Shown: positions 55,080-64,000 of the stretch, piece after piece | Layout: each line of letters starts with the position of its first letter | Numbering within the stretch: the stretch's first letter is position 1 | NCBI RefSeq assembly: GCF_003148685.1 | Contig: NZ_QGGR01000037.1 | Location: 1-64,000 of the forward strand | Reading direction: 5' to 3' | Source of the DNA: Actinoplanes xinjiangensis | GTDB lineage: Bacteria > Actinomycetota > Actinomycetes > Mycobacteriales > Micromonosporaceae | Length of the DNA stretch: 64,000 nt | Made by a program: the position numbers and the translations under genes | The notes under the pieces: generated by a model | Seen by the model: the letters and a program-made list of their open reading frames with translations, nothing else | Databases searched by the model: none | What the model was told of the DNA's origin: nothing

Positions 55080-55832
55080 ATGACTTACGACTTCGACGTG
55101 ACCGGCGACGGCCCGGCCGTACTTCTGCTGCATTCGACCGTCTGCGACCGCCGCATGTGGGATCCCCAGGTGGCCGCCCTGGCCGCCGCGGGCCGCCGGG
55201 TGGTGCGCCTGGACCTCGTCGGCCACGGCGGCACCCCGGTGCCGGCCGGCCGTTTCGACGAGGCCGGGGGCGTCGCCGAACTCCTCGACGGTCTCGGTGT
55301 CGGCGAGACCGCGCTGGTCGGCTCCTCCGGCGGTGGCCGGCTGGCGCTGGAGTTCGCCGCCCGCTGGCCGGGCCGGGTGACCGCGCTGGCGCTGCTCTGC
55401 ACCGCGCTGCGCGGCCACGGTGCCGGCCCCGAGCTGGAGGCCTTCGACGAGCGCGAGGAGGCGCTGCTGGAGGCGGGTGACGTCGCCGGCGCCGTCGACC
55501 TGAACGTGGATCTGTGGGTGGGCCCGGAAGCCGACGACGCGACCCGCGAGAGGGTACGGGTCATGCAGCGCCACGCGTTCGACGTGCAGCTCGCCGCCGA
55601 GGACGTCGCCTACGAGCCGGTCCGCACCGACCCGGACCTCAGCCGGATCAGTGCGCCCACCCTGCTGGTCACCGGCGCCCACGACCTGCCGGACTTCCGG
55701 GAGATCGCCGTGCATCTGGCCGGTGTGCTGCCGAAGGCACAGCACGTGGAACTGGCCTGGGCCGGTCACCTGCCCAGTCTGGAACGGCCCGAGGAGATCA
55801 ACGGGCTGTTGCTGGAGTTCCTCGCCGGATAG
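55080..55832 (+). CDS. Alpha/beta hydrolase
   Basis: 250 residues. LLLHSTVCDRRMWDPQVAALAAAGRRVVRLDLVGHGG (oxyanion His-Ser), nucleophile elbow LVGSSGGGRLALEFA, ISAPTLLVTGAHDLPDFREIAVHL with Asp, and AWAGHLPSLERPEEIN with catalytic His. A 3-oxoadipate enol-lactonase-like or general esterase; substrate unknown. The 3' end overlaps the convergent LLM gene by 35 bases. Confidence 0.9.
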   Translation: MTYDFDVTGDGPAVLLLHSTVCDRRMWDPQVAALAAAGRRVVRLDLVGHGGTPVPAGRFDEAGGVAELLDGLGVGETALVGSSGGGRLALEFAARWPGRVTALALLCTALRGHGAGPELEAFDEREEALLEAGDVAGAVDLNVDLWVGPEADDATRERVRVMQRHAFDVQLAAEDVAYEPVRTDPDLSRISAPTLLVTGAHDLPDFREIAVHLAGVLPKAQHVELAWAGHLPSLERPEEINGLLLEFLAG

Positions 55833-56658
55833 CGGCGACGGTCGCGGCGAACCGCACGAACCCCTCCGGATCGGGATCGTCCGGGGCCGGCTGCAGGACC
55901 ACCGTGTCCGCGCCCGCCCCGGCCCAGCGGCCGACCTGCTCGGCGACCTCGTCGGCGTCCCCGGTCACCGCGCGGTCCACGATGGTCGGATAGCCCCAGT
56001 TGACCCGTTCCCGTTCCATCCGCTCGGCCGCACCGGGGCCGGTCGCCGTGTGCAGGTAGACGACCAGGGGGACGTCGCCGATCACGGCGCGCGCCGCCCG
56101 TACGTCATCGGGGGTGTTCCCCGCACTGATGATGACGCCGTCGCCGATCTCGCCGGCCAGCCGCAGGGTCTTCGGGCCGGAGGCGCCGACCAAGACGGGC
56201 GCCGCCGCCGTCGGCGGCCAGTCCAGGGCGACGCCGTCGAGGTGAACGTACCGCCCGTCGACCGTGACCCGCTCGCCGGCGAGGAGCTGCCGCAGGGCGG
56301 TGACGTGCTCGCGGAGCAGCGTCATCGGTGACGAGACGCGGGCACCGACCTGGCCCATCCAGTCCTGCACGCCGTGGCCGACCCCGATGTGCGCCCGCCC
56401 CGGGAAGAGCCGGTGCAGCGTGGCGAACTCCATCGCGGCGATCGCCACGTTGCGCAGCGGCACCGGGAGCAGGCCTACTCCCACCTTCAGCCGGTCGCTC
56501 CAGGCGAGCGCGGCCGCCATGGTGGCGACGCCGCTGGTCAGGAAACAGTCCTCCCACAGCCACAGCTCTTCGAGCCCGGACTCGTCGGCCGCCTGCACGA
56601 CCGCGCGCAAACGGTCCGGCGGTAGCTGCGGCAGGGCGATGGCCCCCAGTACGGTCAT
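55798..56658 (-). CDS. LLM-class flavin-dependent oxidoreductase
   Basis: 286 residues from the ATG overlapping the upstream stop. TIM-barrel luciferase-like fold: ADESGLEELWLWEDCFLTSGVATMAAALAWSDRLKVGVGLLPVPLRN, LHRLFPGRAHIGVGHGVQDWMGQVG, VLVGASGPKTLRLAGEIGDGVIISAG. Typical of F420- or FMN-dependent oxidoreductases in actinomycetes. Last gene of the six-gene aminotransferase operon, overlapping the glycosyltransferase gene by four bases (ATGA). Confidence 0.88.
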   Translation of the reverse strand: MTVLGAIALPQLPPDRLRAVVQAADESGLEELWLWEDCFLTSGVATMAAALAWSDRLKVGVGLLPVPLRNVAIAAMEFATLHRLFPGRAHIGVGHGVQDWMGQVGARVSSPMTLLREHVTALRQLLAGERVTVDGRYVHLDGVALDWPPTAAAPVLVGASGPKTLRLAGEIGDGVIISAGNTPDDVRAARAVIGDVPLVVYLHTATGPGAAERMERERVNWGYPTIVDRAVTGDADEVAEQVGRWAGAGADTVVLQPAPDDPDPEGFVRFAATVAAIRRGTPATAR

Positions 56659-58229
56659 GCTGGCACCTTGTCCTCGTCGGTGATCCGCCGGTACAGGTGG
56701 TCCGGTGACAGGTTCGTGTACCAGGGTGTGACCGGGCGGCGTTCGTACCGTTCCATGCCTACCAGGAAAGCCAGCGCATAGCCCGCGCTCAGGGTGAGGA
56801 AGGCGGCCGACCACGCCGCGATGACGACGTGCTCGCCCTGGATCAGCCGGGCCACCGCGAGCCCCAGCGCCGACACCTCGGCCAGCGCGAACACCCGGTA
56901 GGCCCACTTGAGCCGGGCGTCGGTGCCACGCCGCGCCCGTTTGTCGGTCACCCCGAACTCCCGCTCCCCGAAGATCGCCGCGGGCAGGGCGGCGAGCATC
57001 GGCAGCGTGTCGGCGACGGCGAACGCCTCGCTGTGCAGCGGGTGGTAGTGGCCGCGGCCGAACCGGACGACGGTCCCGATCGAGAGGATCGTGAAGGCGA
57101 GGAAGGCGAAGCCGTAGACGGCGTACGGTCCGCGCACCGGCGCCACCCCGGTGGTCAGGGCCGCGACCGGGACCAGCAGGTAGAGCAGCCGGTTCAGCCC
57201 CTGGAAGTGCGCGACCATGGCGCTGAGGTAGTTGAGTCGCTGCCGCCAGGAGAGTCCACGGACGATCAGTGGCGAGTCCGGATGCCGCAGCAGCAGGTGC
57301 AGACTGCCGATCGCCCAGCGGCGCCGGGTCCCGTAGTACTGGCGCAGGTTGTTGACCTCCAGCCCGTACGCGAGCGGCTCCTCCAGATAGACCGACCGCC
57401 AGCCGCGGGCGTGCAACCGCAGTGACGTGTGGATGTCCTCGGTGGACGTGTCCTCGGCGAACCCGCCCACATCGTCGAGTGCGCTCCGCCGCAGCATCGC
57501 CGACGTGCCGGTGTAGATGGCGCTGCCCGCGCTGTTCTTCGTCGGCTGCACCCCGCCGTAGAACATCTCCTGCTCGTGCCAGCCGCCGTCGCGCCCGTGC
57601 CGGCGGCGGAAGGTGAACGATTCGGTGTTGTAGAACGACTGCGGTGACTGGACGACGGCCACCTCCGGGTCGTCGAAATAGCCGAGGGTGCGCTCGATGA
57701 AGCCGGGCAGCGGGATGTGGTCGGCGTCGAGGGTGACCACGAACTCGGCGTCGGTCACCCCCAGTCCGTGGTTGAGGTTGCCGGCCTTGGCACCCGCACT
57801 CGTGGCCCGGGGCAGGTAACGGGCCCCCAGCCGGGCGGCCATCTCGCGCATCTCGGGGCGGCTGCCGTCGTCGAGGACGATCACGTCGCGGACGCCGCGG
57901 ACCCGCAGCGCGCCGATCACCGTAGGTTCGAGCACCGGGGCGGGCTCGTTCACGGTGGGGATCAGGATGTCGACGGTCCGGGTGACGGCGCCGGTCACGG
58001 TCCGCGGCACCGGGCGGGTGCGGCGGCGCAGCGAGATCACGAAGATCGTGGTGGTGACGACCGCGAACATCTCCGCGGCCCAGGCGATCGGCCCGTACCA
58101 GACCGACCAGTTGACGACCGCGGTCCGCCAGACGGCGAAGAGCGGGGCCAGGGTCAGGAAGACGGCGAACAGGATCGGCAGCTGCGGCGGGTCGCGGTCG
58201 GCGACCTGCTCAACGCGGTACGGGGACAT
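56655..58229 (-). CDS. Membrane glycosyltransferase family 2, cellulose-synthase-like
   Basis: 524 residues. Two N-terminal helices, then GT2 domain with VIVLDDGSRPEMREMA, VTLDADHIPLPGFIERTL, DTSTEDIHTSLRLHARGWRSVYLEEPLAYGLEVNNLRQYYGTRRRWAIGSLHLL, i.e. the D, DxD, TED and RRRW (in place of QxxRW) motifs of processive GTs, followed by a cluster of membrane helices. No PilZ domain. Could polymerise or transfer a sugar across the membrane. Overlaps the IMPase-like gene by 20 bases. Confidence 0.9.
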   Translation of the reverse strand: MSPYRVEQVADRDPPQLPILFAVFLTLAPLFAVWRTAVVNWSVWYGPIAWAAEMFAVVTTTIFVISLRRRTRPVPRTVTGAVTRTVDILIPTVNEPAPVLEPTVIGALRVRGVRDVIVLDDGSRPEMREMAARLGARYLPRATSAGAKAGNLNHGLGVTDAEFVVTLDADHIPLPGFIERTLGYFDDPEVAVVQSPQSFYNTESFTFRRRHGRDGGWHEQEMFYGGVQPTKNSAGSAIYTGTSAMLRRSALDDVGGFAEDTSTEDIHTSLRLHARGWRSVYLEEPLAYGLEVNNLRQYYGTRRRWAIGSLHLLLRHPDSPLIVRGLSWRQRLNYLSAMVAHFQGLNRLLYLLVPVAALTTGVAPVRGPYAVYGFAFLAFTILSIGTVVRFGRGHYHPLHSEAFAVADTLPMLAALPAAIFGEREFGVTDKRARRGTDARLKWAYRVFALAEVSALGLAVARLIQGEHVVIAAWSAAFLTLSAGYALAFLVGMERYERRPVTPWYTNLSPDHLYRRITDEDKVPA

Positions 58230-59001
58230 GCGCGGTCCTTTCCAGGACGACGGTCAGTTCGGGGTGCAGGGCGGGACCGGCCGCGAGCACGCCGGAGCCC
58301 AGTGCGGTGACGGTGGCACCCGCCTCGGCCGCGACGAGAGCACCGGCCGCGAAGTCCCACGGGGCCAGTTCGTCCTCGTAGTAGGCGTCGCAGCGGCCGG
58401 CGGCAAGCCAGCACAGTTCCAGTGCGGCGCTGCCGTGGCTGCGGATGTCACGAACCTGGTGCAGCAGTCCGGCGAGGGTCCGCGCCTGTCGCGCCCGCGC
58501 CTGCGATGTGTAGGCGAAACCGGTCGTGACGAGGGCGCGGTCGAGGGACACCGGATCGTTGACACGTAGCGGGTCGCCGTTGAGGCGGGCGCCGCGGCCA
58601 CGGACGGCGGTGAACGTCTCCGAGCGGTACGGGTCATGGACGACCCCCACGACGGCCCGCCAGGAACCGTCGGGGAGCTGTTCCTCACCGGCGACACTGA
58701 CTGTGACGTGCGGTGACCCGTACAGCAGATTGGTCGTGCCGTCGACCGGATCCACCACCCACCGCAACCCGGACGTCCCCGCCCGCGCCGTGCCCTCCTC
58801 GCCGAAGACGGCGTCGTGCGGCCGTGAGGCCGCGAGGGAGGCGACCACCGCCGCCTCGCTCGCGAGATCTATCTCGGTCACCGGATCGGTGGCGCTGGAC
58901 TTGTGGCCGGTCAGGCGGACCGGTCCGGCGGCGCGGATCACCCGGCCGCCGTCCCGCGCGGCGGCCACCGCGGCGTCGAGCAACGCCTCGGGGGAGGTCA
59001 T
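58210..59001 (-). CDS. Inositol-monophosphatase family protein
   Basis: 263 residues from ATG 59001. DAAVAAARDGGRVI at the N-terminus, DPVTEIDLASEAAVV, FGEEGTARAG, WVVDPVDGTTNLLYGSPHVTVSVA (metal-binding DPVDGT), and C-terminal APWDFAAGALVAAEAGATVTALG (WDxAAG). Dephosphorylates inositol-phosphate-like or related sugar phosphates. In this operon it could remove phosphate from the cyclitol or sugar intermediate. Confidence 0.9.
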   Translation of the reverse strand: MTSPEALLDAAVAAARDGGRVIRAAGPVRLTGHKSSATDPVTEIDLASEAAVVASLAASRPHDAVFGEEGTARAGTSGLRWVVDPVDGTTNLLYGSPHVTVSVAGEEQLPDGSWRAVVGVVHDPYRSETFTAVRGRGARLNGDPLRVNDPVSLDRALVTTGFAYTSQARARQARTLAGLLHQVRDIRSHGSAALELCWLAAGRCDAYYEDELAPWDFAAGALVAAEAGATVTALGSGVLAAGPALHPELTVVLERTAHVPVPR

Positions 59002-60074
59002 CCGGCGCTCACCCGGCGCACCTCGGCGAGAACCCGCTCGCGGTAGGGGCCGGGCAGGGCGCTGATCGGTTCGAGCACGATGCTCCGGTCCACGCTGCCG
59101 TCCTCCCACGGCAGGGCCAGGCCCACCAGCGGCAGCGTCTCGACCTCGGTGGCCGTCGCGGGCAGCACCGGGCCGGAGCCGGGCGGCACGCCGACCACCA
59201 GATGCGCCCGCCCCTCGACGCGGCCGTGGACGACGGTGAGCCCGCCGGCCGAGGGGCGCAGGCCGCGGTAGTGCCCGTTGGCCTCGAAGTCGCCGAACGC
59301 GCAGGCCAGCTCGACGTCGAGCCCGGGCCATTTGCGCAGGAAGTAGCGGTAGTTGGGCGCCTCGGTGCGGCGGTTCGCGGCCACGCTGCGCAGGTGTGGC
59401 AGGTGGACGCCGAAGAAGCCGGGGCCCATGACGACGGGTGTCCCACCGCGGGCCACCCGGTACGCCCACTCCAGGTCCTCCACGCCGTATCCCTGGAAGG
59501 CGGGGTCGAACTCGGCGGCCAGGTCGCGGGGCAGCGCGATCAGCGCGGTCCACGCGAACGACCACGGGATCAGGTGATCGGCGGTCATCCGGGGGTCCCG
59601 GTCGCCGGTCCCGGTCGTCTCCAGGTCGGTGAGGATCTTGCGATAGTGCTCGTAGGGCTGCACGTCGACGCTTGTCACGTCACCGGTGTTGTTGTCGTAG
59701 TCGATCATCTGCCCGACCACGCAGATCCGCTGCCCGTAGGCGAAATGCCGGTCCCACAGGTCGGCCAGGCACCGCGGCGGCAGCGCCATGTCGACGTCCA
59801 TCAGCACCACGACGGCACCGGCGGCCTGCCGCAACGCCAGATTACGGGCCGCACCGACCTGCCATGGCCGGGCCGACGTGACGGTGACGACGTCGAGCCG
59901 GCCGGCGAACTCCCGGCACACGGCGGCGTGCCCGCCGTCGTCGTCGAGCACACCGAGCACCACTTCGAAATCGCCGGCGGGCAGTGTCTGGTCGGCGAGC
60001 GCGGACAGGGCGAGGCGCAGGTTGGCGGCCCGGTCGCGGTACGGGATGACGACGCTGATCAGCGGCTCACTCAC
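58998..60074 (-). CDS. Glycosyltransferase family 2/27-like protein with a methyltransferase-like C-terminal tail
   Basis: 358 residues, GTG start. GT2 fold: ISVVIPYRDRAANLRLALSALADQTLP, DVDMALPPRCLADLWDRHF (DxD), IPWSFAWTALIALPRDLAAEFDPAFQGYGVEDLEWAYRVARGGTPVV with the galactosyltransferase-type GYGVEDLEW motif. The last ~50 residues (LPLVGLALPWEDGSVDRSIV, then SALPGPYRERVLAEVRRVSAG) resemble the end of a SAM methyltransferase but without its SAM-binding core. Probable cytosolic transferase of a hexose or hexosamine. Overlaps neighbours by 4 and 8 bases. Confidence 0.85.
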   Translation of the reverse strand: MSEPLISVVIPYRDRAANLRLALSALADQTLPAGDFEVVLGVLDDDGGHAAVCREFAGRLDVVTVTSARPWQVGAARNLALRQAAGAVVVLMDVDMALPPRCLADLWDRHFAYGQRICVVGQMIDYDNNTGDVTSVDVQPYEHYRKILTDLETTGTGDRDPRMTADHLIPWSFAWTALIALPRDLAAEFDPAFQGYGVEDLEWAYRVARGGTPVVMGPGFFGVHLPHLRSVAANRRTEAPNYRYFLRKWPGLDVELACAFGDFEANGHYRGLRPSAGGLTVVHGRVEGRAHLVVGVPPGSGPVLPATATEVETLPLVGLALPWEDGSVDRSIVLEPISALPGPYRERVLAEVRRVSAG

Positions 60075-61131
60075 CGCCGCCGCCCGGCGCGATCAGGACC
60101 TTGCAGCTGGCCTGCTCGGCCGGCCCGAACCGGCGTGCGCCGACGTCGCAGCCCAGCGCCGCGAACCCGGTGCGGAACTCGTCGAGCGGGACCACGTGGC
60201 TGACCAGCCGTTCCGCGGGGACGCGGCCGGTGGTGATCAGGTGGAAGGCCTCGTCGAAGGAGCCGTGCAGCGAGTCGATGGAACCGATCACCGACAGGCT
60301 GCGGTCGGCGAGCAGCATGGTGTCGATCGACGCGACCTTCTCCTTCAGGCCGATCGACATGTACGTCCCACCCGGCGCCATCTGCGGGAAGAGGTCCTCC
60401 AGCAGCGCCGACGTGGTGTCGACGACGATGTCGATCGGCGCCGCCGGATCGTTGAAGTACTTGCTGCGGGCCTCCTCCAGGGAGGCGTAGGCGGCGGTGC
60501 CGTCGGGCAGCCGGTCCCGGGCGAACTCCAGCCGCGCCGCGGAGTGCTCGATCAGCACCGGGGTCAGGCCCTTGAGCGACAGCACCCAGGTGTAGAGCAG
60601 CCCGAGCGGCCCGGCCCCGAAGACGTAGGTGTACGCGCTCAGCGACGGCGGCTGCAGTTTGCGGGCGCCGGCCACGACACAGCTCAGCGGCTCGGTCAGG
60701 GCGGCCGCCCGCAGCGACACGTCGTCCGGCACCCGGTGCACGAACGCCGAAGTGGTGCGGTATCGCCCGGCATACGCCCCGTCGTAGCTGACGCCGCTCT
60801 CGGTGCCGTGCTTGCCGACGCAGTGGTTGATCCGCTGGGTGCGGCACATCCGGCAGCGCCCGCAGTACGGCGTCGGGTTGATCACCACCCGGTCGCCGAC
60901 GGCGATCGAGGTGACCGCCGGGCCGATCTCGGCGATGACACCGCTCGCCTCGTGGCCGAGGGTGACGCCGGGAACGGCCACCGGATAGGAGCCGGAGACG
61001 ATGCCCAGATCGGTGCCGCAGACACCGCAGTAACTGATGTCGACGACCACGTCGTCGTCGCCGGTCGCGTGCAGATCGGGAACCTCGCTGAGCTCGACGT
61101 CCCAGGGGCCCCGGTACTTGAGTGCTTTCAC
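60067..61131 (-). CDS. Zinc-dependent alcohol/polyol dehydrogenase (MDR)
   Basis: 354 residues, GTG start overlapping the aminotransferase stop (GTGA). Catalytic zinc ligands Cys38 (GVCGTD), His60-Glu61 (GHEAS); structural zinc cysteines Cys90, Cys93, Cys96 and Cys104. NAD site VFGAGPLGLLYTWVL. Closest in pattern to sorbitol/threonine-dehydrogenase-like MDR enzymes and scyllo-inosose/2-deoxyinosamine-type dehydrogenases. It likely oxidises a polyol hydroxyl to a ketone, the substrate for the neighbouring aminotransferase. Confidence 0.88.
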   Translation of the reverse strand: MKALKYRGPWDVELSEVPDLHATGDDDVVVDISYCGVCGTDLGIVSGSYPVAVPGVTLGHEASGVIAEIGPAVTSIAVGDRVVINPTPYCGRCRMCRTQRINHCVGKHGTESGVSYDGAYAGRYRTTSAFVHRVPDDVSLRAAALTEPLSCVVAGARKLQPPSLSAYTYVFGAGPLGLLYTWVLSLKGLTPVLIEHSAARLEFARDRLPDGTAAYASLEEARSKYFNDPAAPIDIVVDTTSALLEDLFPQMAPGGTYMSIGLKEKVASIDTMLLADRSLSVIGSIDSLHGSFDEAFHLITTGRVPAERLVSHVVPLDEFRTGFAALGCDVGARRFGPAEQASCKVLIAPGGGGE

Positions 61132-62381
61132 GGCCGCGTGGCCTCCCTCTGATCGGACCGCAGGGTCTCGTGCAGGCGGCCGAGCAGGTCGTCGACCTGC
61201 TCGGTGGTGATGATCAGCGGCGGCCTGACCTTGACGGTCCGGCCGAAGCCGTAGCGGCTGCCGCGCAGGATGAGCCCGTGCTCCCGGGCCACGGCGATGA
61301 ACTGTGCGACGTCGACGCTGGTCGGCAGGTCGAACGCCTGCATCAGGCCGACACCACGGACCCCGGTCATGTCGGGGAAGGTCCGGGACAGGGCGAGCAG
61401 GCCGCGGTGCAGCCGCTCGCCGGTGACCCGCACCTGGTCGAGGACCCGGTGCCGGTGGATGTACCGGATCGTCTCCTCCAGGGCGACCAGGGCGAGCGGA
61501 TTGGCGCCGGAGGTGCTGGAGTGCTCCCACGGCTCGAGGACGTCCAGTTCGGGCCGCATCACCACGCCGGCGACCGGGATGCCGACGCCTCCGGCGCCCT
61601 TGGCGAAGGTGATGACGTCCGGGCGGAGGGCCGCGGCGTAGCCGGTGGAGGCGAAGAACGATCCGGTACGCCCGAAGCCGGTCTGCACCTCGTCGGCGAT
61701 GATCAGGACACCCAGCCGGTCGCAGGTCTCGCGGAGCACGGCATACCACTCCGGGGGTGGAACGATGTTGCCGCCGTTGCCCATGATCGGTTCGACGACC
61801 AGGGCCGCCACCCGGCCGCTCGACGCATACTCCACGAAGTCCTCGAGCCGCCGCGCGCAGAGCATCGCGCAACTGCCCGGGACCTGGCCGTAGAAACAGT
61901 TCGCACAGTCCGGCCCGGGGATCTTGACCGAGTGCGGGAACGGAAGCGAGAAACTGCGCTGCCGGAAGGCGTTGCCGGACACCCCGGTCGTACCGACGGT
62001 CTGCCCGTGGTGCGACAGGAACAGCGAGACGATGTCGGACCGGCCGGTCGCCTTCTGCACGATCCGGATCGCCGCCTCGTTGGCGCCGGAGCCGGTGATG
62101 TCGCGGAACCAGAAGGCACCGATGTGCGGCGGCAGATCATCGCGCATCAGCTCGAAGATCTCCGCCGAGCGGGCACGGGTGAAATCGGAGGAGAGATGCG
62201 CGATCCGGTCGAGCTGGCCGTGCAGTGCCTCGATGATCTCCGGCGCCGAGTAGCCGAGCGAGACGTTGAACGTCCCGGACGCGCAGTCGATGAATCGTTC
62301 GCCACGGACGTGCAGGTAGATCCCGTCCCCGACATAGTCCGGCAGGCCGGTGACCGGCTTGGAGATGATGCTCGAACTCAT
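61128..62381 (-). CDS. Class III PLP-dependent aminotransferase
   Basis: 417 residues from ATG 62381. Conserved Asp230 (LIIADEVQTGFGRTG) and PLP lysine Lys261 (ITFAKGAGG), FHSHHGQTVG-like SHHGQTVGTTG, and a four-cysteine loop Cys159-x2-Cys162 and Cys171-x3-Cys175, a feature of many class III aminotransferases. First gene of the operon. Transfers an amino group to a keto substrate, probably the ketone from the dehydrogenase. Confidence 0.92.
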   Translation of the reverse strand: MSSSIISKPVTGLPDYVGDGIYLHVRGERFIDCASGTFNVSLGYSAPEIIEALHGQLDRIAHLSSDFTRARSAEIFELMRDDLPPHIGAFWFRDITGSGANEAAIRIVQKATGRSDIVSLFLSHHGQTVGTTGVSGNAFRQRSFSLPFPHSVKIPGPDCANCFYGQVPGSCAMLCARRLEDFVEYASSGRVAALVVEPIMGNGGNIVPPPEWYAVLRETCDRLGVLIIADEVQTGFGRTGSFFASTGYAAALRPDVITFAKGAGGVGIPVAGVVMRPELDVLEPWEHSSTSGANPLALVALEETIRYIHRHRVLDQVRVTGERLHRGLLALSRTFPDMTGVRGVGLMQAFDLPTSVDVAQFIAVAREHGLILRGSRYGFGRTVKVRPPLIITTEQVDDLLGRLHETLRSDQREATRP

Positions 62382-62669
62382 TTCTCGCCTTTCCGCTCGC
62401 ATTGCGTGGGCTGCAATCCACAGTGGTCAATCGCAGCTATACGCGTCAAGGTCTGAACCGGTTAAGTTGATCGTCAGAGCCGTCTGAGCTGCTGATCCTA
62501 ATGAATGTGCCGATAATCACGTAGGACCAGCAAAGACGGTTAAGTGACACCCTTTTCTCTCCGCTGTCGCCGCCAGGTTTCCGAGATGACAAGCAGAAAT
62601 TGCCAGGTTATTAAAATGAAAAACGCGGGCCGGGAGCGAAGCTCCGGCCCGCGTCGCCGCGATGGCGGC
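62382..62669. other. Upstream region of the aminotransferase operon
   Basis: 288 bases, notably less GC-rich. The nonamer GGTTAAGTT/GGTTAAGTG occurs twice (62459 and 62535 areas), possible regulator half-sites. A hairpin terminator for the downstream minus gene occupies 62614-62653. No gene seen. Confidence 0.6.
62614..62653 (-). terminator. Rho-independent terminator of the 62670 gene
   Basis: Read on the minus strand: CGCGGGCCGGAGC pairs with GCTCCCGGCCCGCG around TTC, followed by a T-rich tail (TTTTTCATTTT). Strong, classical terminator 16 bases after the gene stop. Confidence 0.9.
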
Positions 62670-63425
62670 TCAGTCCGCGACGCTCCACTCGGTGAGCTGC
62701 CCGGCCACCGACCGGTCACCGTCGACCCGGACGTCGGCCAGCGGGATCCGCCGGTAGAGCGCCAGGACCAGGTCACTCGCGGTGCCGTGGAGCCGGGTGA
62801 CCGGCTCACCGCTGGCCGGTGGGTCCGCCTTGGCGCCGGATGGGGACAGATCGAGCGTCCAGGACGGGCCCTCGATCGCCTGGAACGCCACCCGGGCCGG
62901 GCGATGTGGCCAGGCACCGAGCGAACCCAGGCCGACCTGGAGGAACTCGCTGACACCGTCGACCGCGACGGCGGCCGGCAGCGGCTCCGCCTTACCGATC
63001 GCCTCCTGCGCGTCGTAGGCGTGCACGGCGGCCTCCTGCACCTGGTGCCGGGCGACCGCGCCGGAGGTCAGCGGCGCGTCGGAAGCGCCCCACCACGCCC
63101 AGCAGGGGGTGTCGGGACCGGCGTCACGCAGCGCCGCCACCAGCAGCCCGGTCGACGTGGCGGACCACTCCACCAGGTCACCGTGCGGCTGCCGGTCGCC
63201 GAGCTGATCGGCGGAGGGCGGCCCGGAGTCGTCACCGGCGGCGACCGCCGCGGCCCAGAACCGGTGCACGCCCCCCAGATGGGCGACCAGATCGGTGAGC
63301 GACCAGTCGGGGCAGCCGGGAACGGTGACGGCCAGGTCCGGCGCGGCGGCGACGGCCTCCCGGAACGCCGCCGACCGTCCCTCGATCAGCGCGAGCAGCT
63401 CGGGGAATGGCGGTGTCGAAGTCAT
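62670..63425 (-). CDS. Maleylpyruvate isomerase family, mycothiol-dependent enzyme
   Basis: 251 residues: LALIEGRSAAFREAVAAAPDLAVTVPGCPDWSLTDLVAHLGGVHRFWAAAV carries the DinB-type metal-binding His (DLVAHLGGVH), later VARHQVQEAAVHAYDAQEAIG provides the other ligands, and RLHGTASDLVLALYRRIP is the C-terminal MDMPI domain. Likely a mycothiol-dependent transferase or isomerase; substrate unknown. Confidence 0.85.
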   Translation of the reverse strand: MTSTPPFPELLALIEGRSAAFREAVAAAPDLAVTVPGCPDWSLTDLVAHLGGVHRFWAAAVAAGDDSGPPSADQLGDRQPHGDLVEWSATSTGLLVAALRDAGPDTPCWAWWGASDAPLTSGAVARHQVQEAAVHAYDAQEAIGKAEPLPAAVAVDGVSEFLQVGLGSLGAWPHRPARVAFQAIEGPSWTLDLSPSGAKADPPASGEPVTRLHGTASDLVLALYRRIPLADVRVDGDRSVAGQLTEWSVAD

Positions 63426-63452
63426 ACCCGGTTTCTATCACCGGGGTACGAC

Positions 63453-63483
63453 AAAGGGCGGCCGCATGATCGCGGACCGCCCC
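63453..63483 (-). terminator. Rho-independent terminator of the SufT-like gene
   Basis: On the minus strand, GGGCGGTCCGCG pairs with GCGGCCGCCC across ATCAT, followed by TTT, 22 bases after the stop at 63506. Confidence 0.75.
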
Positions 63484-63505
63484 TCGTGCCGTACGAAAAA
63501 CCAGG

Positions 63506-64000
63506 TCAGACGTTGAAGCCGAGCGCCCGGAGCTGGTCGCGGCCGTCGTCGGTGATCTTGTCGGGGCCCCACGGCGGCAGCCACACCCAGTTGATCCGGA
63601 AGTCGTCGACGAGCCCGCCACCCGGGCCGGTGGTCAGCGCCTGGCGGGTCTGGTCCTCGATGACGTCGGTCAGCGGGCAGGCCGCCGAGGTCAGCGTCAT
63701 GTCGATGGTGACCACGTTGTCGTCGTCCACGTGGGTGCCGTAGACCAGGCCCAGGTCGACGACGTTGATGCCCAGCTCGGGGTCGACGACGTCCTTCATC
63801 GCCTCCTCGACGTCGGCGGTCGACGCCTTCGGCTTGTTCGAGGCGCCGGCCGCGGCGACCGGCGCACCCTCGGCGGAGCCACCATCGGCGGAGCCATCAT
63901 CGGCAACCGAGTCCGAGTCGGCGGCCGGGCCGATCGGGGTGCTGTCGGCGGGTCCCCCACCGGAGACCGAGTCCGAGGCGACGGCGTCGGCCCCGGCCAC
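63506..64000 (-). CDS. SufT-like metal-sulfur cluster assembly factor, start may lie beyond the window
   Basis: At least 164 residues; the open frame reaches the edge of the window, where the last codon happens to be GTG, so the true start is unknown. A low-complexity Asp/Gly/Ser/Ala region (residues ~1-55) precedes a DUF59/MIP18 domain: VEEAMKDVVDPELGINVVDLGLVYGTHVDDDNVVTIDMTLTSAACPLTDVIEDQTRQAL with the reactive Cys of SAACPLT, then PPWGPDKITDDGRDQLRALGFNV. The gene probably follows suf genes outside the window, as is usual. Confidence 0.88.
   Translation of the reverse strand: MAGADAVASDSVSGGGPADSTPIGPAADSDSVADDGSADGGSAEGAPVAAAGASNKPKASTADVEEAMKDVVDPELGINVVDLGLVYGTHVDDDNVVTIDMTLTSAACPLTDVIEDQTRQALTTGPGGGLVDDFRINWVWLPPWGPDKITDDGRDQLRALGFNV

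What the first reader, a model, noticed from the sequence alone, without database searches (positions are those of the whole stretch)
55798..62381. Tight six-gene operon with the logic of an aminocyclitol or amino-polyol glycoside pathway
Class III aminotransferase, zinc polyol dehydrogenase, glycosyltransferase, IMPase-like phosphatase, membrane GT2 and LLM oxidoreductase are joined by overlaps of 4, 8, 4, 20 and 4 bases. Dehydrogenation then transamination of a cyclitol, with an inositol-phosphatase and glycosyl transfers, is the chemistry of aminocyclitol biosynthesis, yet no inositol-dehydrogenase, 2-DOI or valiolone synthase gene is here. A cell-associated glycolipid or secreted amino-cyclitol glycoside is possible. 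Overlaps and families are read from sequence; pathway and product are inference.
Basis: partly seen in the sequence, partly recalled or inferred. Interest (0 to 1): 0.75.

Follow-up and report, generated by a model that had tools for sequence, protein, structure and literature searches.

The report
Azasugar-type operon with two glycosyltransferases
A six-gene operon that probably makes a nitrogen-containing sugar mimic (an azasugar, the kind of molecule that blocks sugar-cutting enzymes) and then attaches sugars to it; this looks like a new arrangement of a known pathway, and it offers a candidate for a step reported as unidentified.

Summary
In detail: six genes on the minus strand at 55798-62381 with overlaps of 4, 8, 4, 20 and 4 bases. 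All six recur in 11 of 15 related loci, in the same order on one strand in 10, at several unrelated sites; four loci keep only aminotransferase-dehydrogenase-GT_A-GT_B. The aminocyclitol reading is not supported: the genome has one DHQ-synthase-family gene, most likely aroB. The aminotransferase and dehydrogenase group in matching trees with enzymes of azasugar gene clusters, nearest the Chitinophaga type, and are about 60% and 63% identical to Clostridium clusters that continue with HAD phosphatase, MFS and DUF1349 genes. Best reading: an azasugar core, glycosylated by two GT2 enzymes, with an F420-type reductase that may do the unidentified imine reduction. A CebR/CelR-like operator precedes the operon in 12 of 15 loci, but not in this window. 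Product and reactions are inferred. New variant of a known kind.

The parts
61128..62381 (-). AT: class-III aminotransferase of the GabT1 (azasugar) group, 417 aa; signature SGNAFRQRSFSLPFPHSVKIPGPDCANC
   Evidence: PF00202; 59.5-60.8% id to Clostridium, 43% Chitinophaga, 40-41% Bacillus GabT1-type, 24-32% to 8 other class-III ATs of the same genome; trees; motif
60067..61131 (-). DH: zinc-type medium-chain polyol dehydrogenase (GutB1-like role proposed), 354 aa, GTG start
   Evidence: PF08240; 62.5-63.7% id to Clostridium, 36-37% Chitinophaga, 30-32% Bacillus GutB1-type over part of the length; tree matches the AT tree
58998..60074 (-). GT_A: GT2 glycosyltransferase without an evident membrane segment, with a C-terminal extension, 358 aa, GTG start; DVD and VEDLEW motifs kept in most orthologs
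   Evidence: PF00535; 14 orthologs at 57-87% id; motifs; hydropathy; model of low confidence, pLDDT 60
58210..59001 (-). IMP: inositol-monophosphatase-family phosphatase, 263 aa; DPVDGT and WDFA present
   Evidence: PF00459 200 bits; only 30% over 63 aa to YktC1-type (E 0.001); 51-56% id to IMPs next to GT_A homologs in another kind of cluster
56655..58229 (-). GT_B: membrane GT2 resembling cellulose synthase BcsA, 524 aa, about six hydrophobic segments; DAD and TED kept, QxxRW position reads TRRRW, in 15 of 15
   Evidence: TIGR03030 288 bits, cut-off 699; BcsA structures are the best PDB hits; motifs; hydropathy
55798..56658 (-). LLM: luciferase-like hydride transferase of F420 type, 286 aa
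   Evidence: PF00296; best PDB sequence and fold hits are F420-dependent Mer and FGD; model pLDDT 86
62382..62669 (-). promoter region: TTGAC and, 18 bases after TTGACG, a CCAnTGTnG block, both invariant in 8 of 8 genus loci; the CebR/CelR-like site found here in 12 of 15 operon loci is missing in this window
   Evidence: alignment, scans
62454..62467 (-). ACTTAACCGGTTCA, a partly palindromic element just upstream of TTGAC; putative regulator site
   Evidence: 13-base core exact in 8 of 8 genus operon promoters and at no other place in the 199 loci held; in the window 6 hits at 4 places at up to 3 mismatches against 0.83 hits expected, this one exact

Best explanation
The operon is an azasugar (iminosugar) pathway fitted with glycosyltransferases. 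AT aminates the keto group of a phosphoketose (fructose-6-phosphate or a pentulose-5-phosphate; not decided). IMP removes the phosphate. DH oxidises the freed primary alcohol, and the amine closes on the new aldehyde to give a cyclic hemiaminal/imine. LLM may reduce this imine with F420H2 to a 1-deoxy azasugar. GT_A and the membrane enzyme GT_B attach sugar(s), and GT_B may also move the product across the membrane, since no transporter belongs to the unit. The order of glycosylation and dephosphorylation is open; because GT_A and IMP homologs are also neighbours in another kind of cluster, GT_A may act on a phosphorylated acceptor that IMP then frees. Shown: the genes, their linkage, tree placement, catalytic motifs. 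Inferred: every reaction and the product.
For: AT tree: 37 ATs (30 from trio-type or operon loci, 7 others) separate at 100/100 from 8 class-III ATs of the same genome; operon + Clostridium + Chitinophaga ATs form a clade at 100/99. DH tree: the same grouping at 96/94. Bacillus locus L173 has the neighbours described for the deoxynojirimycin producer in PMC8382821: MFS gene upstream, AT, IMPase, DH, sulfate-type and bile-acid-type transporters. Closest relatives found outside the family, Clostridium L083, L175, L176, are AT-DH-HAD phosphatase followed by MFS and DUF1349 genes (the L176 MFS gene is read from its likeness to L175); HAD and DUF1349 (PF07081) are families the paper lists for Chitinophaga/Paenibacillus clusters. 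L068-L071 of the same family have AT-IMP-DH and nearly the full published AT signature. LLM is of F420 type by sequence and fold, CofD is in the genome, and F420-dependent LLHT enzymes reduce endocyclic imines elsewhere (PMC8498797, passages). LLM copies of one clade occur in all 15 operon genomes: 11 linked, 4 unlinked.
Against: No product or activity is known. The AT signature is only partly kept (PYCxRC reads PDCANC, FPN is missing), and the 37-member AT group includes an aminocyclitol-type AT (L076), as the paper also reports for ValM, so the AT alone does not decide. IMP is not close to YktC1, and 4 of 15 loci have no linked IMP or LLM. DH C-terminal Pfam models score under cut-off. No transporter in the unit, whereas the paper calls an MFS gene common. 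LLM relatives (55-60% id) also occur in 2 of 2 tested genus genomes without the operon, so LLM is not pathway-specific by itself. GT_A relatives (43-50%) occur in 5 genomes without this AT.
Confidence: 0.66

Rival explanations
1. Aminocyclitol glycoside: DH and AT oxidise and aminate an inositol-derived cyclitol, IMP supplies inositol, GTs glycosylate it.
For: Best NCBIfam hit of the DH is scyllo-inosose 3-dehydrogenase IolM (132 bits, cut-off 450). ValM, an aminocyclitol aminotransferase, belongs to the GabT1 network (PMC8382821), and the L076 AT to our 37-member group. IMP resembles inositol monophosphatase.
Against: One PF01761 gene genome-wide, over the aroB cut-off, which speaks against valiolone and 2-DOI routes; inositol routes stay possible. 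L076 has an AT without SGNxFR and a DH 23% identical. An azasugar-type DH hits IolM equally. Nearest relatives form AT-DH-HAD clusters of azasugar type.
Confidence: 0.12
2. Amino-sugar or amino-polyol decorated surface glycan or glycolipid: AT/DH/IMP make an open-chain or reducing amino sugar that GT_A and the BcsA-like GT_B build into a cell-associated glycan; no azasugar is released.
For: GT_B resembles a processive beta-1,4-glucan synthase; no exporter in the unit; GT_A and IMP homologs also sit together with a different AT and a PIG-L gene in L194-L196.
Against: QxxRW of processive synthases reads TRRRW in 15 of 15; DH and AT cluster with enzymes of azasugar clusters; the unit sits at unrelated genomic sites, more like a specialised metabolite than a wall component (inference).
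Confidence: 0.15
3. A pathway that breaks down or modifies a plant cell-wall-derived sugar, switched on by cello-oligosaccharides.
For: CebR/CelR-type site upstream of AT in 12 of 15 loci.
Against: None of the six genes is a glycoside hydrolase, sugar transporter or kinase; two glycosyltransferases point to synthesis. Thaxtomin synthesis is also under CebR (PMC5332605, passages), so the site does not imply catabolism. The site is missing in this window.
Confidence: 0.05

Closest known systems
Chitinophaga azasugar-type clusters (L077, L078; relatives of the DAB-1 producer C. pinensis)
   Same: Join the operon genes and Clostridium in both trees (100/99 and 96/94); AT-DH order; L078 is AT-DH-HAD-MFS
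   Different: 43% AT, 36-37% DH; HAD instead of IMPase and an MFS transporter (L078); no GT_A, GT_B, IMP or LLM hits
Bacillus deoxynojirimycin cluster gabT1-yktC1-gutB1 (L173 as reference)
   Same: Same three enzyme classes, IMPase-family phosphatase
   Different: 40-41% AT, 30-32% DH; phosphatase not close; order AT-IMP-DH; no GTs
Clostridium AT-DH-HAD-MFS-DUF1349 clusters (L083 C. gasigenes; L175, L176)
   Same: Closest relatives found outside the family: about 60% AT, 63% DH, same AT-DH order
   Different: HAD, MFS and kinase/DUF1349 genes instead of IMP, GTs and LLM; I know of no characterised member
AT-IMP-DH-GH35-AfsA-amidase-P450 clusters of the same family (L068-L071)
   Same: Same AT/IMP/DH classes, AT with nearly the published signature
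   Different: 43-46% AT, 34-37% DH; other tailoring genes, no GT_A/GT_B orthologs; L069 has three GT2-like genes on the other strand nearby
Validamycin-type C7-aminocyclitol clusters (L076)
   Same: Class-III AT of the same wide group next to a zinc-type dehydrogenase
   Different: Has sugar-phosphate cyclase and GT20; AT lacks SGNxFR; DH 23% identical
Galactosyrin cluster gsn (PMC11844564, passages)
   Same: PF00107-family oxidase, phosphatase, iminosugar product
   Different: No aminotransferase; RibD-like reductase

Membership tests
Azasugar three-gene cluster (3GC; PMC8382821) | Class-III aminotransferase (PF00202) of the GabT1 group | tested here: met
   PF00202 250 bits; 40-41% to Bacillus GabT1-type; in a 37-member group apart at 100/100 from 8 other class-III ATs of the genome; that group also holds one aminocyclitol-type AT
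Azasugar three-gene cluster (3GC; PMC8382821) | AT consensus SGNXFRXXXFPNXXXXXXXLXVPXPYCXRC | tested here: inconclusive
   SGNAFR, a later F, KIPxP and CxxC kept; FPN and PYCxRC not; two residues shorter. L073 and L074, which have the trio classes, read SGAAFR, so the signature varies
Azasugar three-gene cluster (3GC; PMC8382821) | Adjacent dehydrogenase of PF08240/PF00107/PF16912 | tested here: met
   PF08240 over cut-off; PF16912 32.8 of 34.9 and PF00107 25.4 of 31.8 bits, under cut-off; clade with Chitinophaga DH 96/94
Azasugar three-gene cluster (3GC; PMC8382821) | Neighbouring phosphatase, PF00459 or HAD | tested here: met
   PF00459 200 bits, separated from DH by GT_A; not close to YktC1; not found in 4 of 15 loci
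Azasugar three-gene cluster (3GC; PMC8382821) | Produces an azasugar | not testable with these tools
   needs enzymology or metabolomics
C7- or 2-DOI-type aminocyclitol pathway | Sugar-phosphate cyclase (valiolone or 2-DOI synthase, DHQ-synthase family) | tested here: not met
   one PF01761 gene in the genome, over the aroB cut-off; the L076 cyclase passes that cut-off too, so the assignment to aroB rests on the shikimate pathway needing one
C7- or 2-DOI-type aminocyclitol pathway | ValN-like dehydrogenase | tested here: not met
   23% identity, E 6e-6 to the L076 dehydrogenase
Inositol-derived aminocyclitol pathway | Inositol dehydrogenase and inosose aminotransferase | tested here: inconclusive
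   DH best NCBIfam hit IolM far below cut-off; genome-wide inositol dehydrogenases not searched
Processive cellulose synthase (BcsA/CelA) | TIGR03030 over cut-off and QxxRW | tested here: not met
   288 of 699 bits; TRRRW in 15 of 15 orthologs; QxxRW as the rule is recalled
F420-dependent luciferase-like hydride transferase | Nearest sequence and fold relatives are F420-dependent; organism makes F420 | tested here: met
   first 19 listed hits are F420-dependent enzymes; CofD; cofactor binding not tested
CebR/CelR regulon | TGGGAGCGCTCCCA-like site in the promoter | tested here: inconclusive
   12 of 15 operon loci at 1-2 mismatches, none exact; absent in the window, its sister L030, and L063

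The most novel reading that the evidence does not exclude
The operon makes a cello-oligosaccharide-like azasugar: GT_A and the cellulose-synthase-like GT_B put glucose units on an azasugar, giving an inhibitor shaped like a cellulose fragment, made in most carriers when the CebR/CelR repressor senses cellobiose, and aimed at the cellulases or beta-glucosidases of competitors. LLM would be the imine reductase that bacterial azasugar pathways have lacked.
Probability: 0.12. Interest if true: 0.85.

Novelty: new variant of a known kind. Interest (0 to 1): 0.6.

Why it matters
In the sections and passages I read on bacterial azasugar clusters, no glycosyltransferase is described as part of one; glycosyltransferases in a conserved azasugar-type unit would give a genetic handle on azasugar glycosides. 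PMC8382821 states that the epimerase and reductase that finish deoxynojirimycin are unidentified; an F420-type reductase in this unit is a concrete candidate for the reductive step. The regulator site suggests when such compounds are made, and that paper says their natural functions are yet to be established. Azasugars are drug leads as glycosidase inhibitors.

Tried and rejected
Rejected: valiolone/2-DOI aminocyclitol. Rejected: that the IolM-like NCBIfam hit implies inositol. Weakened: LLM as a dedicated operon enzyme, since relatives occur in 2 of 2 tested genomes without the operon; kept as a candidate because copies from operon genomes group apart at 100/99, though from only two outsiders and on a midpoint root. 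Weakened: IMP as a YktC1 ortholog. Weakened: a CebR-like site as a feature of this window; it is absent here. The GT_A model was too weak (pLDDT 60) and was not searched. The ACTTAACCGGTTCA element: 4 papers hold such a string, all unrelated by title (listing). Actinoplanes with azasugar: one review (listing). I found no paper that describes glycosyltransferases in an azasugar cluster (listings plus the papers named; the library lacks most subscription papers). Supplementary tables of PMC8382821 were not available, so I cannot say whether some of these loci are in its list (it counts 5 Micromonospora hits).

One search covered all 80 but printed only the first seven or those with two or more other hits.
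Full report
What is there. The window is C37:1-64000 of a 10.8-Mb, 86-contig genome. Its family is held with 354 genomes; from genome size and kinship I take it to be an Actinoplanes-like member of the Micromonosporaceae, but no tool named it. GC3 is 0.85-0.94. A 288-base gap separates AT from the next gene upstream.

Is it a unit? Close DH orthologs (86-96% identity) occur in 8 of 67 genus genomes counting its own; the next hits are 40% or less. All 8 loci hold all six genes in the same order. In the family, the AT matches 24 of 354 genomes at E<=1e-60: 15 at 69-100% and 9 at 39-48%. Of those 15, 10 hold all six in order on one strand, one (L063, a 9.9-kb contig) holds all six with GT_B and LLM on the other side of AT, and four (L064-L067) show AT-DH-GT_A-GT_B only. 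L029-L033 share flanking genes; L034, L035, L036, L061 and L062 share none of them at the thresholds used. So the unit sits at several genomic sites with its borders kept. Broader samples: 4 of 397 order genomes at 1e-90, all of this family and counting its own; 1 of 396 phylum genomes at 1e-60, its own.

What pathway? PMC8382821 (parts 1-4 of 5 read) defines bacterial azasugar clusters by three genes: a class-III aminotransferase, a phosphatase (IMPase or HAD family) and a zinc-type dehydrogenase. All three classes are here. In the AT tree, 37 ATs separate at 100/100 from 8 of the 12 other class-III ATs of this genome (one search lists 13 matches with the window's). The 37 are 15 operon, 3 Clostridium, 6 AT-IMP-DH actinomycete, 4 Bacillus, 2 Chitinophaga and 7 other loci; the 7 include L076, an aminocyclitol-type cluster, so membership of the 37 does not by itself mean azasugar. 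Inside it, operon ATs join Clostridium and Chitinophaga at 100/99, while L076 falls on the Bacillus side next to L073/L074 (98/89, long branch). The DH tree repeats the main split: operon + Clostridium + Chitinophaga at 96/94, Bacillus + actinomycete trios at 88/70; nine unlinked genus dehydrogenases and Cylindrospermum L080 fall outside at 100/99. The tool warned of long branches and unusual composition. Bacillus locus L173 shows the neighbours given in the paper for the deoxynojirimycin producer. Chitinophaga L078 is AT-DH-HAD-MFS. The nearest outsiders found are Clostridium loci: AT 59.5-60.8%, DH 62.5-63.7%, then HAD phosphatase, MFS and a kinase/DUF1349 protein in L175 and L176, with the last two swapped in L083; the MFS gene of L176 was read from its likeness to L175. 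The paper lists PF13419 and PF07081 (DUF1349) among families of Chitinophaga and Paenibacillus clusters. In that genus 3 of 68 genomes carry the DH. The AT signature is partly kept. IMP is of the right family but not close to YktC1; the paper says phosphatases in these clusters are diverse.

Against aminocyclitol. The genome, given as 100% complete, has one PF01761 gene, which passes the aroB cut-off. L076, with a cyclase-family gene, GT20, AT and dehydrogenase, is the comparison; calling it C7-aminocyclitol-type rests on recalled validamycin gene content. Its AT reads NGTSRM where azasugar ATs have SGNxFR and its DH is 23% identical to ours. Its cyclase also passes the aroB cut-off, so that model does not separate the two; our genome's single gene is taken as aroB because the shikimate pathway needs one (inference). 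An inositol-based route cannot be excluded.

The other genes. GT_A and GT_B keep GT2 acidic motifs. GT_B resembles BcsA, but the QxxRW position reads TRRRW in 15 of 15, which argues against ordinary chain synthesis (inference). GT_A matches 20 of 354 family genomes at 1e-40: the 15 operon genomes and 5 others. In 3 of 6 extra loci fetched (L194-L196) a GT_A homolog is followed by an IMP homolog (51-56%) in a different cluster; Pfam, run mainly on L195, gives an NRPS A-T protein, thioesterase (from L196), BioA-like AT, thymidine phosphorylase, TauD, PIG-L and, in L195, APH. So GT_A and IMP occur as a pair twice; IMP may act after glycosylation. GT2-like genes also lie near one AT-IMP-DH cluster, L069, so GTs near such trios may not be confined to this unit. 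LLM is F420-type and CofD is present. The four operon genomes lacking a linked LLM carry a 60-64% copy elsewhere; two genomes without the operon carry 55-60% copies; a 17-row tree separates the latter at 100/99. F420-dependent LLHT enzymes reduce endocyclic imines in other pathways (PMC8498797, passages), and the azasugar reductase is unidentified (PMC8382821). LLM is therefore a candidate, not more.

Regulation. Aligning eight promoters showed TTGAC and CCAnTGTnG invariant. A site within 2 mismatches of the CebR/CelR consensus TGGGAGCGCTCCCA lies 29-272 bases before AT in 12 of 15 loci. In 284,992 bases of the 15 loci there are 13 such sites, 12 of them in this promoter; in 378,953 bases of 21 other loci of the family there are 2. 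The loci are related, so these are not independent. CebR/CelR represses cellulose-use genes and responds to cellobiose; imperfect sites control thaxtomin genes (PMC5332605, PMC3377646, passages). The site is missing in the window, its sister L030 and L063. A second element, CTTAACCGGTTCA, is exact in 8 of 8 genus promoters and nowhere else in 199 loci; several of those loci overlap.

Verdict. It has the tested features of an azasugar 3GC except the full AT signature; production is untested. Novelty: new variant of a known kind.

Noticed in passing
L194:1058-10843, L195:5129-16481, L196:6394-16349: A second cluster type in the same family pairs GT_A and IMP homologs with an NRPS A-T protein, thioesterase, BioA-like aminotransferase, thymidine phosphorylase, TauD dioxygenase and PIG-L; perhaps a nucleoside- or aminosugar-type pathway. 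No literature search was made for it.
   Followed up: partly
L068-L071 (e.g. L069:2-11188): AT-IMP-DH in this family sits in a conserved ten-gene cluster with GH35, AfsA-like, amidase, P450, SnoaL and IclR genes; product unknown to me.
   Followed up: partly
window 62454-62467: ACTTAACCGGTTCA element, found only in the eight genus operon promoters among the loci held; its regulator is unknown.
   Followed up: partly
L083:12057-13169, L175:5479-6591, L176:5094-6206: Clostridium loci carry a protein joining a weak P-loop kinase-like part to DUF1349; the DUF1349 part also matches in Chitinophaga L077 and Cylindrospermum L080 loci.
   Followed up: partly
window 62670-64000 and on to C37:69598: Upstream of the operon, past an MDMPI-family gene, lie SUF iron-sulfur assembly genes; the same neighbours occur in five genus loci, L029-L033 (Pfam run on the window genome only).
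   Followed up: no
L076:5000-15235: C7-aminocyclitol-type cluster with sugar-phosphate cyclase, MFS, GT20, class-III AT, dehydrogenase, xylose-isomerase-like and nucleotidyltransferase genes.
   Followed up: partly
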